Below, piece by piece: positions 8,498 through 49,143 of a DNA stretch of 64,000 nt. The DNA lies in contig NZ_CP034879.1 in assembly GCF_005081945.1 (NCBI RefSeq), forward strand, positions 579,932 to 643,931, given 5' to 3'. The notes below the pieces were generated by a model that was not told the origin of the DNA, did not search any database, and saw only the letters and a program-made list of their open reading frames with translations. How positions within the stretch are numbered: position 1 is the first letter of the stretch; the number at the start of each line of letters is the position of its first letter. Origin of the DNA: Buchnera aphidicola (Brachycaudus cardui). GTDB lineage: Bacteria; Pseudomonadota; Gammaproteobacteria; Enterobacterales; Enterobacteriaceae. The position numbers and the translations under genes were made by a program.

Positions 8498-9177
8498 ATG
8501 AAAAAAATTGATATAAATTTTAATTTAATAAAAAAAAAATAGACAATATTATTAAAAATAATAATCTTCCTTTAAAAAAAATTAAAATTATAGCAGTAAC
8601 TAAAAACCAAAATATTAATGTAATTAAAAAAGCAATATCAATAGGAATAAAAGAATTTGGAGAAAATTATATCCAAGAAAGTATTGTAAAAATACAAGCA
8701 TTAAAAAATTATAAAAATATTATTTGGCATTTTATTGGTAAAATACAATCTAAAAAAACTAAAATTATTGCTCAAAATTTTCACTGGTGCCAAACAATTG
8801 ATCGAGAAAAAATTGCAATTTTATTAAATAAATATAGACCTAAAAATTTACCTCCAATTAATGTATTAATACAGATAAATATTTCTGAAGAAAAAAATAA
8901 AAATGGAGTATATATCAAAGATTATAAAAAATTAGCAGAAAGCATTTATTTAATGCCTCATCTTAATTTAAGAGGAATTATGGCCATGCCTGCAATAAAC
9001 AAAAATTCTATAGATAATAGCATTCAATATAAACAAATAAAAACGATTTTTGAAAAATTAAAAAAAAGATATATCTCAGTAGATACTTTATCATTAGGTA
9101 CTAGTTTCGATATAAAAAAATCTTTAATTGCTACAAGTAACATGATAAGAATTGGACGTGATATTTTTGACAAATAA
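8498..9177 (+). CDS. yggS: PLP-binding protein YggS family, frameshifted in a poly(A) run
   Basis: YggS/PLPBP controls pyridoxal-phosphate balance. Starting at ATG 8498, with AAGGTG seven bases upstream, the frame reaches TAG at 8540 after only 14 codons, inside/after ten A at 8530-8539. The frame one base behind is then open from 8539 to the stop at 9175-9177 and reads as the whole YggS body. It includes IIAVTKNQN (PLP-binding lysine), FGENYIQES, WHFIGKIQSKK, LNLRGIMAMPA and LSLGTSFD. One extra A would give a 226-residue protein (E. coli 234). The downstream part alone has no usable start until 8953. It is functional only if slippage or a sequencing error is involved. Confidence 0.88.
8530..8539 (+). 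other. Poly(A) slip site in yggS (A10; one A short)
   Basis: Ten consecutive A. The upstream frame (ATG 8498) and downstream frame differ by exactly one base here, so 11 A would restore yggS. Seen directly; whether RNA polymerase slips here is inference. Confidence 0.8.
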
Positions 9178-9221
9178 AGGGCTTCAATTCCATGTTAATT
9201 TTATAAAACGAAAATATTATT

Positions 9222-10352
9222 ATGTGTAAACTACAAACTATTAGCCTATACATTCATATTCCTTGGTGTTTAAAAAAATGTGGATACTGTGATTTTTATT
9301 CATATGTAAGTAAAGATAATATTCCAGAAAAAAAATACATCGAACATTTACTAAAAGATTTTGAACAAGATTTACGACTAATTAATAATAGAGAAATTAA
9401 TACTATCTTCATTGGTGGTGGAACACCTAGTTTATTGAAAGCTTCATCTATAAAACAATTAATTTATGGTCTTAAAGAAAGAGCATTAGTTTCTAAAAAT
9501 GCAGAAATTAGCATAGAAGCAAATCCTAAAACAATGGAATATAAACGTTTCATTCATTATAAAAATGCTGGTGTTAATCGTTTTTCTTTAGGTATTCAAA
9601 CATTTAACTCTAATTTATTACAAAAAATAGAACGTACATATGATTCAAAAGAAGCAATTAATGCAATTAAAGAATCAAAGAAAATTATTAATAATCTTAA
9701 TTTAGATTTAATGTATGGTTTACCGGATCAGATATTAGAAGATACGTTATTAGATTTAAAAAATGCTATTAAACATAATCCATCACATATATCATGGTAT
9801 CAACTTAGTATAGAACCTAATACTCCATTTTATTCTAAAAAAATAAAACTTCCTCACGAGGATCTCATTTTTAAAATGTTGATACAAGGAGAAAAATTAC
9901 TAGAAAAATCAGGATATAAAAAATATGAAATATCCTCATATTCAAAACCAAATTATCAATGTCAACATAATCTTAATTATTGGAATTTTGGCGATTATAT
10001 AGGAATAGGTTGTAGTGCTCATGGAAAAATTACACAAAAAAATGGTAAAGTTCTTAGAACTCTTAAAAATAAAAATATTAATGATTTTTTACATGGTAAT
10101 TATCTTAATTCTATACATTCAGTTTCTCAAAAAGATCAAGTATTTGAATATTTTATGAATGTTTTTAGATTATATAAACCAGTGTTAAAAAAACATTTTA
10201 GAGAAAAAACAAATGTAAATGAAATAGTTATTAAAAACCAAATTCAAATAGCAATAAAAAATGGATTTTTAACTAATAAAAAAAATTATTGGTATACAAC
10301 TAAAAAAGGAAAATTTTTTTTAAATTTATTATTAGAAATTTTCTTAAACTGA
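9222..10352 (+). CDS. hemW: Radical SAM heme chaperone HemW
   Basis: The protein is 376 residues (E. coli HemW/YggW 378). The radical SAM cluster motif CxxxCxxC is C16, C20 and C23 in WCLKKCGYCDF, followed by IFIGGGTPS (SAM glycine-rich motif), GVNRFSLGIQTF, and CQHNLNYW. HemW was long annotated as a coproporphyrinogen oxidase but is now regarded as a heme chaperone. Its retention where most heme synthesis genes are not in view is interesting. It follows yggS by about 45 bp on the same strand and is convergent with trmB. Confidence 0.95.
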   Translation: MCKLQTISLYIHIPWCLKKCGYCDFYSYVSKDNIPEKKYIEHLLKDFEQDLRLINNREINTIFIGGGTPSLLKASSIKQLIYGLKERALVSKNAEISIEANPKTMEYKRFIHYKNAGVNRFSLGIQTFNSNLLQKIERTYDSKEAINAIKESKKIINNLNLDLMYGLPDQILEDTLLDLKNAIKHNPSHISWYQLSIEPNTPFYSKKIKLPHEDLIFKMLIQGEKLLEKSGYKKYEISSYSKPNYQCQHNLNYWNFGDYIGIGCSAHGKITQKNGKVLRTLKNKNINDFLHGNYLNSIHSVSQKDQVFEYFMNVFRLYKPVLKKHFREKTNVNEIVIKNQIQIAIKNGFLTNKKNYWYTTKKGKFFLNLLLEIFLN

Positions 10353-10362
10353 ATAAAATATT

Positions 10363-46958: not shown

Positions 46959-47303
46959 ATGAAAAAAAATATTAATAATTTTTATATGTTAGTGGATGCA
47001 TTATTTCTAAAAATTGAAGATAATTTAAATTTATATGATAATCATGATATTGATATTGATTATGAAATTCAAGATTATGTTATGACTATTACTTTTGCAA
47101 ATAAAAGTGTTATTATTATTAATAAACAAGAACTATTACAACAAATATGGCTAGCTACAACAGTAAATGGATATCATTTTAATTATAGGGAAAATGAATG
47201 GATTTGTAATCGTAGCAATAAAAATTTTTGGGAAATATTTCAATATGCATGTTCTGTTCAATCAAATAAAAACATTATTTTTATAAAAAATAATATTAAT
47301 TAA
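46959..47303 (+). CDS. cyaY: Frataxin-like protein CyaY
   Basis: CyaY binds iron and modulates IscS-dependent cluster assembly. From the ATG at 46959 it is 114 residues (E. coli 106); an in-frame GTG at 46947 is less likely. Conserved: acidic first helix, IDIDYEIQDYVMTITFANKSVIIINKQ, QIWLAT, GYHFNY, and EWICNRS. It lies between dapF and hemC, as expected from E. coli after loss of cyaA. Confidence 0.93.
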   Translation: MKKNINNFYMLVDALFLKIEDNLNLYDNHDIDIDYEIQDYVMTITFANKSVIIINKQELLQQIWLATTVNGYHFNYRENEWICNRSNKNFWEIFQYACSVQSNKNIIFIKNNIN

Positions 47304-47411
47304 ATACAAAAAAAATTTTTATATATAAAAATAAAAAATATGATAAGGTTTGTATCTTTTTTTAGATTAAAACATTATAAAAAACATATCTATATTAAAA
47401 CGAATAGTAAT

Positions 47412-48356
47412 ATGCAAAATAAAACATTAAGAATTGCTACTAGAAAAAGTCCTTTAGCATTACAACAAACAAAATATGTTCAAAAAAAAATACTGTCTTT
47501 ATATCCAGATTTAAATATAAAATTAGTACCTATTGTCACTCATGGAGATAATATTTTAAATAAATCTCTTTCAAAAATTGGAGGAAAAGGATTATTTATA
47601 AAAGAATTAGAACTTGCCCTCCTTGAAAATAAAGCAGATATTGCAATTCATTCGATGAAAGATCTTCCAGTAAATATTACAAAAGAATTATGTGTAGTTA
47701 GTATATGTAAAAGAGGAAATCCTTTAGATACACTAGTATCTAACAATTATCAATCAATTAATCACTTACCTTATGGTGCAATAGTTGGCACATCTAGCTT
47801 AAGAAGACAATGTCAATTAATTACTTATAGACCAGATTTAATTATTTCTCCTTTAAGAGGAAACGTAGAAACAAGAATAGCTAAATTAGATCAAGGTAAA
47901 TATGATGCCATTATTCTTGCTACTGAAGGATTAAATAGATTAAGTTTAAAACATCGAATTACTCAAATTATACCTGCTGAATTATCTCTTCCTTCTTGTG
48001 GTCAAGGTGCAATTGGAATTCAATCTAGATTACATGATAAAAAAATATTGTTTTTTTTATCTCATCTTAATGACATCAATACTTTTATTGAAATTAATGC
48101 AGAACGTGCTTTTTGTAGAAAGTTAGAATCAGGATGTCAGATTCCGATTGGTAGTTATGCTATTTTAAAAAAAAATAAAATTTGGTTAAGAGGATTAATA
48201 GGCTCACCAAATGGAAAAATAATATTAAAAGGAGAAAGAATAGGTTGCTATAATACAGGAGAAAAAATGGGATATTCACTTGCTGACGAATTGCTTGATA
48301 ATGGTGCTCAAAATATTCTAAATGATCTTCATATAAAACAATCTTATTATCTATGA
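47412..48356 (+). CDS. hemC: Porphobilinogen deaminase
   Basis: HemC polymerises four porphobilinogens to hydroxymethylbilane. From the ATG at 47412 the protein is 314 residues (E. coli 313): MQNKTLRIATRKSPLAL, GGKGLFIKELE, HSMKDLP, GTSSLRRQCQL, LRGNVETRIAKLD and the dipyrromethane-binding cysteine in ESGCQIPIGSY. The frame is open upstream to 47340 without family match. Its stop overlaps the hemD start as ATGA. Confidence 0.95.
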   Translation: MQNKTLRIATRKSPLALQQTKYVQKKILSLYPDLNIKLVPIVTHGDNILNKSLSKIGGKGLFIKELELALLENKADIAIHSMKDLPVNITKELCVVSICKRGNPLDTLVSNNYQSINHLPYGAIVGTSSLRRQCQLITYRPDLIISPLRGNVETRIAKLDQGKYDAIILATEGLNRLSLKHRITQIIPAELSLPSCGQGAIGIQSRLHDKKILFFLSHLNDINTFIEINAERAFCRKLESGCQIPIGSYAILKKNKIWLRGLIGSPNGKIILKGERIGCYNTGEKMGYSLADELLDNGAQNILNDLHIKQSYYL

Positions 48357-49143
48357 AAATATTAGTCATGCGACCTTCACCGACAGGAGAAGAGTTAGTT
48401 AAAAATCTTAATGAAATAGGTATAGATTCTTGGCATTTTTCTTTATTTGATTTTTTTCCGAGTATGAGCTCAATAAGTTTATCAAATAAGATTAATTCAT
48501 TATATCACTCTAATGTAATTCTTATTTTCTCAAAAAAATCTATTTATTATACTAATTTATATTTAAAAAAAAATAATTTAAAATGGCCGTCTGATGCAAA
48601 ATATTATGCTATTGGAAAAAGTACAGCTATGTTCCTTCATAAATATGTTAAAAAAAAATTGTTTTTCCTAAAAAAGAAAATAGTGAAAATTTATTCAAAA
48701 TTTTGTATAAAAATGTTTTAAAAGATGATCAAATTATTTTATTAAAAGGGGAAAATGGAAGAAATTTTATAGAAGATCATTTAAAAAAAGAAGGTTTTAA
48801 TATTTGTATATTAGAATGTTATAAAAGAGTTTTAAAAAGTTTCGATAGTAGAATAGAAGCAAAAAAATGGCGTTTAAACAAAATAAATACTTTAATAGCA
48901 ACAAGTGGTGAAATTTTATATCAATTAAAAAATATTATTTCTGATCAAGATCAGATTGAATGGCTTTTACAATGTCAAGTTTTTGTTATAAGTAATAGAT
49001 TGTCAAAAATAGCAAAACACTTAGGATGGAAAAACATTATAGTTGCTAAACATGCTCACAATGAATCTTTATTAAGAATAATTAAACATGAATACTTTAA
49101 AAAAAATAATTTTTTCTATTTTGGTCGGCGAAAGAGGATTTGA
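48353..49143 (+). CDS. hemD: Uroporphyrinogen-III synthase HemD, frameshifted in a poly(A) run
   Basis: The first frame (MKILVMRPSPTGEELVKNL, ... KWPSDAKYYAIGKSTAMFLH) is HemD-like until nine A at 48650-48658, then becomes unrelated and stops at 48721. The frame one base behind continues HemD: KIVFPKKENSENL, LLKGENGRNFIEDHL, ECYKRVL, TSGEILYQL and KHLGWKNIIVAKHAHN. One extra A gives 263 residues (E. coli 246). The last 22 bp run antisense into the tRNA-Pro gene. Product uroporphyrinogen III is the precursor of siroheme, needed by sulfite reductase. Confidence 0.92.
48650..48658 (+). other. Poly(A) slip site in hemD (A9; one A short)
   Basis: Nine A precede the point where the HemD-like sequence jumps frame by one base. 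Ten A restore the reading frame. Confidence 0.8.

What the first reader, a model, noticed from the sequence alone, without database searches (positions are those of the whole stretch)
8498..49143. Four genes each broken by the loss of exactly one A in a coding-strand poly(A) run
yggS (A10), mutL (A10), the orphan gene (A9) and hemD (A9) share the same lesion. The frame is correct up to the run, and the frame one base behind is correct after it and open to the natural end. One added A repairs every one. The sign is the same in all four, and no other damage is seen in these genes. Decayed genes would have mixed lesions, so the proteins seem to be under selection. RNA-polymerase slippage at poly(A) has been reported to rescue such genes in Buchnera and Blochmannia (Tamas et al. 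2008, from memory). The competing explanation is homopolymer undercalling in the assembly. In-frame A9 runs in gshB (7082, 8016) show that not all long runs are affected.
Basis: partly seen in the sequence, partly recalled or inferred. Interest (0 to 1): 0.85.

Follow-up and report, generated by a model that had tools for sequence, protein, structure and literature searches.

The report
Conserved out-of-frame genes in Buchnera
In this aphid-symbiont genome four genes switch reading frame at a run of nine or ten A's; related symbionts share the same breaks while the proteins stay conserved, so the cell most likely slips on the A's to make them.

Summary
In detail: yggS, mutL, the orphan (yba3) and hemD each switch to the -1 frame at an A9/A10 run and stay open to their ends. 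Other Buchnera share the shift at the homologous run: hemD in 20 others, yggS in 9, yba3 in 28, mutL in the sister genome, so assembly error is unlikely. yba3 has exactly A9 in all 34 of 36 genomes where it was found; one of them and a genome of another genus hold it in one frame. Tails are under purifying selection (hemD tail omega 0.19-0.44, 8 sister pairs). hemD, called 'very rare' in Buchnera in print, is out of frame in 27 of 32 non-decayed copies. pyrE has the same lesion in 14 of 36 genomes. Best explanation: +1 transcriptional slippage, a kind already described; -1 ribosomal slippage is the main rival; no RNA or peptide data were available. Corrected: some relatives are at -2, and 'loss of one A' is unproven for yba3. 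In passing: the yba3 C-terminal half resembles the EspG/VirA fold.

The parts
8498..9177 (+). yggS (Ala_racemase_N family): 14-codon head to the A10, then tail in the -1 frame to the stop at 9175-9177
   Evidence: -1 at the homologous run in 9 other genomes
8530..8539 (+). A10 run of yggS, shift site
25818..27568 (-). mutL: head ORF 26414-27568, tail with MutL_C domain in the -1 frame ending at 25818
26421..26430 (-). A10 (T10 on +) run of mutL, shift site between the two domains; sister G031 has A9 and -1 at the homologous Lys-Lys-Lys-Asp run, G027 is in frame there with A10
40556..41997 (-). yba3, Buchnera orphan gene: N part 41659-41997 (113 codons, MSSN...), A9, C part (371 codons stop to stop, 41671 to 40559) in the -1 frame
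41650..41658 (-). A9 (T9 on +) run of yba3, shift site; exactly A9 in 34 of 34 genomes where the gene was found
48353..49143 (+). hemD, uroporphyrinogen-III synthase: head ORF 48353-48721, tail (HEM4) in the -1 frame to 49143
48650..48658 (+). A9 run of hemD, shift site; -1 at the same run in 20 other genomes
47340..48356 (+). hemC, neighbour and pathway partner; no frame junction in any genome but G002, where hemD is decayed too; neither gene had a hit in G026 or in the partly withheld G008
15651..16295 (+). pyrE (phosphoribosyltransferase; gene name recalled), in frame here with an A9 at 15687-15695; the same A9 carries a -1 shift in 14 of 36 genomes

Best explanation
These are working genes whose DNA is one base short of the tail's frame at an A9/A10 run. 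RNA polymerase slips on the run and adds an A to a fraction of transcripts, so some mRNAs encode the whole protein and the rest a short head. Shown: the frame switch, its sharing among species, selection on the tails, the absence of conserved start codons in the tails. Inferred: that transcription (not the ribosome) makes the shift, its efficiency, and that lower full-length output is tolerated or useful. In yba3 this state is nearly fixed in the genus; in hemD, yggS and pyrE the frame differs between lineages while the protein is kept; mutL is a local case shared with the sister lineage.
For: Sharing: hemD had a hit in 34 of 36 genomes: -1 at the same run in 21, -2 there in 2, -1 at another A9/A10 run in 3, two -1 shifts in 1, in frame in 5, decayed in 2. 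yba3 in 34 of 36: -1 in 29, -2 in 3, one frame in G030, head further damaged in G035. yggS in 30 of 36: -1 in 10, in frame in 19, decayed in 1. pyrE in 36 of 36: -1 in 14. Selection after the shift: hemD tail omega 0.19-0.44 against head 0.15-0.70 in 8 sister pairs both carrying the shift, tail differences at codon positions 165/106/225; yba3 C part 0.19-0.45 in 8 pairs; mutL tail G000-G031 0.23, yggS tails 0.24-0.29 in four shifted pairs, pyrE tails 0.05-0.26 in five shifted pairs. No conserved start in the tails; hemD tails of G001 and G009 hold no ATG/GTG/TTG at all. N and C of yba3 are one protein in single-frame relatives: G045 and G030, P0037. Direction fits PMC5574713 (passages read): in Buchnera 151 of 157 transcription insertions but only 16 deletions fell in homopolymers. 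All 62 A-run junctions of the census have 9 or more A's. The criterion of PMC1088944 (passages read), a 9A run conserved in length with a conserved shifted tail, is met by yba3.
Against: No RNA or protein evidence here. [quoted passage not shown] The yba3 N part is weakly constrained (omega 0.53-1.28). hemD frame states show no phylogenetic clustering (9 changes; shuffles mean 9.1, 298 of 500 at or below), so its shift cannot be called ancestral. The -2 states need two added bases. In-frame A9 runs can be nearly as conserved (hemC 16 of 19). mutL is confirmed in only one other species.
Confidence: 0.66

Rival explanations
1. The ribosome, not RNA polymerase, shifts by -1 on the in-phase A AAA AAA (or A AAA AAG) heptamer that each of the four runs contains, as in dnaX of E. 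coli (recalled).
For: The heptamer is in phase in all four genes (sequence). PMC7245037 (passages read) says expression of Buchnera genes with low-complexity frameshifts is likely rescued by ribosomal frameshifting. Direction -1 fits.
Against: No Shine-Dalgarno-like triplet 5-16 bases upstream: 0 of 33 yba3 and 0 of 21 hemD; no unusual structure in 70 bases downstream (mean z -0.2 and 0.2, simple composition shuffles). No census junction sits at an A7-A8 run although the heptamer needs only seven and 5606 such coding runs exist; mutation rate also rises with length, so this is weak.
Confidence: 0.2
2. Mixed genomes: Buchnera cells hold many chromosome copies (recalled), and a minority with a different run length supplies the protein (replication slippage, DNA-level mixture).
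For: Polymorphic sites, single-base indels among them, are reported within laboratory samples in PMC3164680 (passages read: 13 and 15 sites). hemD frame differs between lineages without phylogenetic order.
Against: Does not explain why the out-of-frame A9 is the assembled form of yba3 in 29 of 34 genomes.
Confidence: 0.06
3. Split genes: head and tail are made as two chains, the tail from an internal or non-AUG start (public records start the yba3 C piece at a codon just after the run).
For: Records P0003, P0004 and P0005 begin right after the run.
Against: The codon after the run is ATT in one large clade but ACT in the other and in G026; first ATG of the yba3 C frame varies from codon 25 to 193; no conserved start in hemD, yggS or pyrE tails; single-frame relatives exist.
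Confidence: 0.04
4. Recent pseudogenes.
For: PMC3890641 (passages read) calls hemD pseudogenized in three A. pisum strains and very rare elsewhere; hemD is decayed in G014 and G002; mutL is decayed in G007, G009, G010, G015.
Against: Tail selection and wide sharing; the partner gene hemC shows no frame junction except in G002.
Confidence: 0.03
5. Assembly undercalling of homopolymers.
For: 454 data were unreliable in poly(A)-rich regions of a Buchnera genome (PMC3890641, passage). Reads of this assembly could not be seen.
Against: Same shift in other species; no junction at 163 coding T9+ runs; an identical 384-aa MutL head is listed on a contig of 644,448 bases while the window's contig has 643,931, probably a second assembly.
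Confidence: 0.01

Closest known systems
Buchnera and Blochmannia genes rescued at poly(A) tracts (Tamas et al. 2008; not held; recalled, and a PMC5009743 passage: 12-50% of transcripts corrected)
   Same: Poly(A) site, one-base lesion, rest of gene intact, same symbiont genus.
   Different: Other genes as far as known to me; here no transcript data, but sharing across the genus and a single-frame relative outside it for yba3.
Ancient frameshifts kept by selection in Blochmannia (Wernegreen et al. 2010; title seen in a reference list, text not held; PMC3017870 passages)
   Same: Frameshifts shared between species without decay.
   Different: Different symbiont and genes; exact A9 in 34 of 34 for yba3.
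Programmed transcriptional slippage (Thermus dnaX A9 and IS elements, PMC1088944 passages; Shigella genes and Citrobacter tssM1 A11, PMC4256274 passages)
   Same: Conserved poly(A) run with a conserved shifted tail; two products expected.
   Different: No experiment here; the slipped product is the full-length one, in an AT-rich symbiont.
E. coli dnaX-type -1 ribosomal frameshifting (recalled)
   Same: In-phase A-rich heptamer, -1 direction.
   Different: No upstream Shine-Dalgarno-like or downstream structure signal found; -2 variants occur.

Membership tests
Slippage-rescued endosymbiont genes (Tamas 2008 kind) | Single frame break located in a long poly(A) run, no other lesion | tested here: met
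   window genes:
Slippage-rescued endosymbiont genes (Tamas 2008 kind) | Protein conserved on both sides of the break | tested here: met
   yba3 N part only weakly (0.53-1.28); yggS head too short to test
Slippage-rescued endosymbiont genes (Tamas 2008 kind) | Mixed transcript lengths at the run including the restored frame | not testable with these tools
   no reads or RNA available
Programmed transcriptional slippage (9A criterion of PMC1088944) | Run length conserved among homologs together with a conserved shifted tail | tested here: met
   for yba3 only: A9 in 34 of 34, shifted tail in 32 of them, one frame in G030, G035 head damaged. hemD: A9/A10 in 29 of 32 non-decayed copies, 5 in frame; mutL: two genomes
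dnaX-type -1 ribosomal frameshifting | Slippery heptamer in phase | tested here: met
   sequence
dnaX-type -1 ribosomal frameshifting | Upstream Shine-Dalgarno-like stimulator | tested here: not met
   0 of 33 yba3, 0 of 21 hemD; yggS and mutL not scanned
dnaX-type -1 ribosomal frameshifting | Downstream RNA structure | tested here: inconclusive
   mean z -0.2 (33 yba3) and 0.2 (21 hemD), simple shuffles
Pseudogene | Loss of constraint or multiple lesions | tested here: not met
   exceptions among relatives: hemD of G014 and G002, yba3 head of G035
EspG/VirA fold (yba3 C-terminal half) | Shared fold | tested here: inconclusive

The most novel reading that the evidence does not exclude
Yba3 is a Buchnera orphan protein, reported as highly expressed in the pea aphid symbiont, whose C-terminal half has an EspG/VirA-like fold, and its full-length form is made only through a conserved A9 slip in nearly the whole genus, so that a fixed fraction of transcripts yields the full protein and the rest a short head. 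The slip site would then be a genus-old expression setting for a host-interaction protein, not a tolerated defect.
Probability: 0.2. Interest if true: 0.85.

Novelty: new member of a known kind. Interest (0 to 1): 0.62.

Why it matters
It changes a metabolic claim: HemD, printed as very rare in Buchnera and recently lost in A. pisum strains (PMC3890641), was found in 34 of 36 genomes, in most of them out of frame but under selection. It gives a natural series (in frame, -1, -2, alternative runs, over 36 genomes) for asking how far slippage can replace a correct reading frame, and how many 'pseudogenes' and 'hypothetical proteins' of AT-rich symbionts are working genes. If yba3 truly needs slippage throughout the genus, an expressed symbiont-specific gene depends on polymerase infidelity.

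Tried and rejected
One search (genome-contig scan with hemC) returned no Buchnera; loci L002-L081 were not used. The lack of AAG interruptions in hemD runs was weighed as evidence against ribosomal slippage and set aside: 94% of Lys codons are AAA. Parsimony for hemD gives no dated origin. Handle names (G014 = Sg, G017 = Ak, G035 = Ua, G008 = Tokyo, from chromosome lengths in PMC3164680 Table 1; G031 = Brachycaudus tragopogonis from contig length 643003; G027 = Myzus persicae from 643.5 kb) are inferences. The name pyrE is recalled; Pfam gives a phosphoribosyltransferase.

Rows dropped: 17 of 87 junctions before the A/T count (decayed gene-genome pairs named in the script, and models g35963, orphN, g34598). 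G008 (32,000 N) and G026 have no hemD hit; hemD of G002 and G014 left out as decayed. mutL of G012 shows another break further downstream, not at a long A run (A6), while one search gave one continuous match there; it was not resolved. The hemD and yba3 selection tests used 8 sister pairs each, chosen from the tree. In one search the run of G005 was picked wrongly; one search replaces it. The protein search with the hemD head could list only proteins of about 67-213 aa, so full-length HemD records could not appear.
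Full report
What the window is. It is the last 64 kb of a contig of 643,931 bases in a 654,826-base, three-contig genome, 24.5% GC. Its genus holds 36 genomes here; the contigs I took stretches from have 587-646 kb. The named records among the protein hits are Buchnera.

Observation. The four runs and frames are as stated. 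Each head stays in frame to the run; each tail lies one base behind and is open to a stop. Three tails carry the expected Pfam domains.

The shifts recur in relatives. hemD had a hit in 34 of 36 genomes: 21 have -1 at the same run (A9 or A10), 2 have -2 there (G013, G035), 3 have -1 at another A9/A10 run (G011, G022, G033), G018 has two -1 shifts, 5 are in frame (G007, G019, G023, G027, G034) and 2 are decayed (G002, G014). So 27 of 32 non-decayed copies are out of frame. In four of the five in-frame copies the run is broken or begins with a non-A base, in none of the 21. yggS was found in 30: 10 have -1 at the A10, 19 are in frame, G002 is decayed. pyrE, not in the finding, has -1 at an A9 near codon 14 in 14 of 36 and is in frame in the window. 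mutL had a match in 25 of 36; at this run it is shifted in G000 and G031 and in frame in G027 with A10; it is decayed in G007, G009, G010 and G015, and G012 may have a different break downstream that is not at a long run (unresolved).

The orphan. A first analysis used a wrong frame and is withdrawn. The gene is yba3: its C piece matches a 474-aa record 'Putative uncharacterized protein Yba3' of the G031 symbiont that holds both parts; the other same-genus records that I read (P0002-P0005, P0022, P0032, P0036) are C pieces. It was found in 34 of 36 genomes (none in G004; G008 partly withheld). All 34 have exactly nine A's at the site. The N part (87-148 codons, beginning MSSN or similar) and the C part (352-411 codons) stand in -1 relation in 29, -2 in 3 (G001, G005, G013), one frame in G030, and in G035 the head holds further shifts. 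In G045, of another genus of the same family, one open frame of 423 codons holds both parts with a G-A9-C run in frame; P0037, of unknown source organism and 33% identity over 41% of the query, is a single 406-aa protein. Thus N and C are best read as one protein, and the shift, if inherited, goes back to the ancestor of the genus, including G026, its deepest branch in a tree whose root support is 0.71. If G014 and G017 are Sg and Ak (lengths in PMC3164680 Table 1, passages read), the shift is older than the Aphidini-Macrosiphini split, which that paper fixes at 65 million years (range 50-70).

Selection. In 8 sister pairs both carrying the hemD shift the tail has omega 0.19-0.44 and the head 0.15-0.70; summed differences at codon positions 1/2/3 are 165/106/225 in 1095 tail codons and 119/59/146 in 792 head codons. 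yba3 C has 0.19-0.45, yba3 N 0.53-1.28 in 8 pairs. mutL tail G000-G031 0.23 and head 0.42. yggS tails in four shifted pairs 0.24-0.29; pyrE tails in five shifted pairs 0.05-0.26. These are simple NG86 values.

Controls. 29 in-frame A9+ runs of intact genes of the window are conserved as A9+ in a median 37% of the up to 20 other genomes compared, best 16 of 19. hemD has A9/A10 at its site in 29 of 32 non-decayed copies, in-frame ones included, and yba3 in 34 of 34. So yba3 exceeds every control; hemD lies at or just above the best. Junctions: 62 at A runs, all 9 or longer, 50 of them one base short; 0 at 163 T9+ runs. An undercalling artefact would hit both strands alike.

Mechanism. Both +1 transcriptional slippage and -1 ribosomal slippage fit a tail in the -1 frame. 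For transcription: insertions dominate Buchnera homopolymer errors (PMC5574713, passages), -2 states exist, no Shine-Dalgarno-like or structural stimulator was found for yba3 and hemD, no census junction at A7-A8. Against: the same paper saw no restored frame; PMC7245037 (passages) favours the ribosome. Internal starts are disfavoured. I put transcriptional slippage at 0.66.

Consequence for hemD. PMC3890641 (passages) states that HemD is very rare among sequenced Buchnera, that APS has no functional HemD and that three other A. pisum strains carry a pseudogenized one, 'a relatively recent loss'. My calls find it in 34 of 36 genomes, mostly out of frame but selected. hemC beside it shows no frame junction except in G002, where both are decayed; neither gene had a hit in G026. 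One search lists 28 head-length proteins (98-141 aa), ten of them named uroporphyrinogen-III synthase; its length limits could not show full-length ones. Searches for a printed account of a hemD, pyrE or yba3 frameshift in Buchnera found none in the held library; Tamas 2008 and Wernegreen 2010 were not held and supplements were not seen, so earlier mention is possible.

Novelty. The kind is known. New here, as far as searched, are the genus-wide yba3 site, the reinterpretation of hemD, and the hemD/yggS/pyrE series.

Noticed in passing
   Followed up: partly
window 15651-16295; G006, G009, G010, G014, G018, G021, G022, G023, G025, G029, G030, G032, G033, G034: pyrE carries a -1 shift at an A9 near codon 14 in 14 of 36 genomes, tails under selection in the five shifted pairs tested.
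   Followed up: partly
G018 hemD (stretches L269-L271): hemD with two separate -1 shifts, at A12 and A9, and an otherwise open tail.
   Followed up: no
g32759 (RNase_T family, probably orn; window 32759-33313) in G003, G006, G010, G018, G022, G026, G029, G032: Frame junctions at A10-A16 runs, six of eight near the 3' end.
   Followed up: no
miaA in G014, G018, G022, G023: One clade has miaA shifted at A10-A12 with mixed sign at about the same place.
   Followed up: no
G002 and G026: hemC and hemD are both decayed in G002 and both without a hit in G026.
   Followed up: no
G008 stretches L236-L238: 32,000 bases read N (withheld), so gene absences there mean nothing.
   Followed up: no
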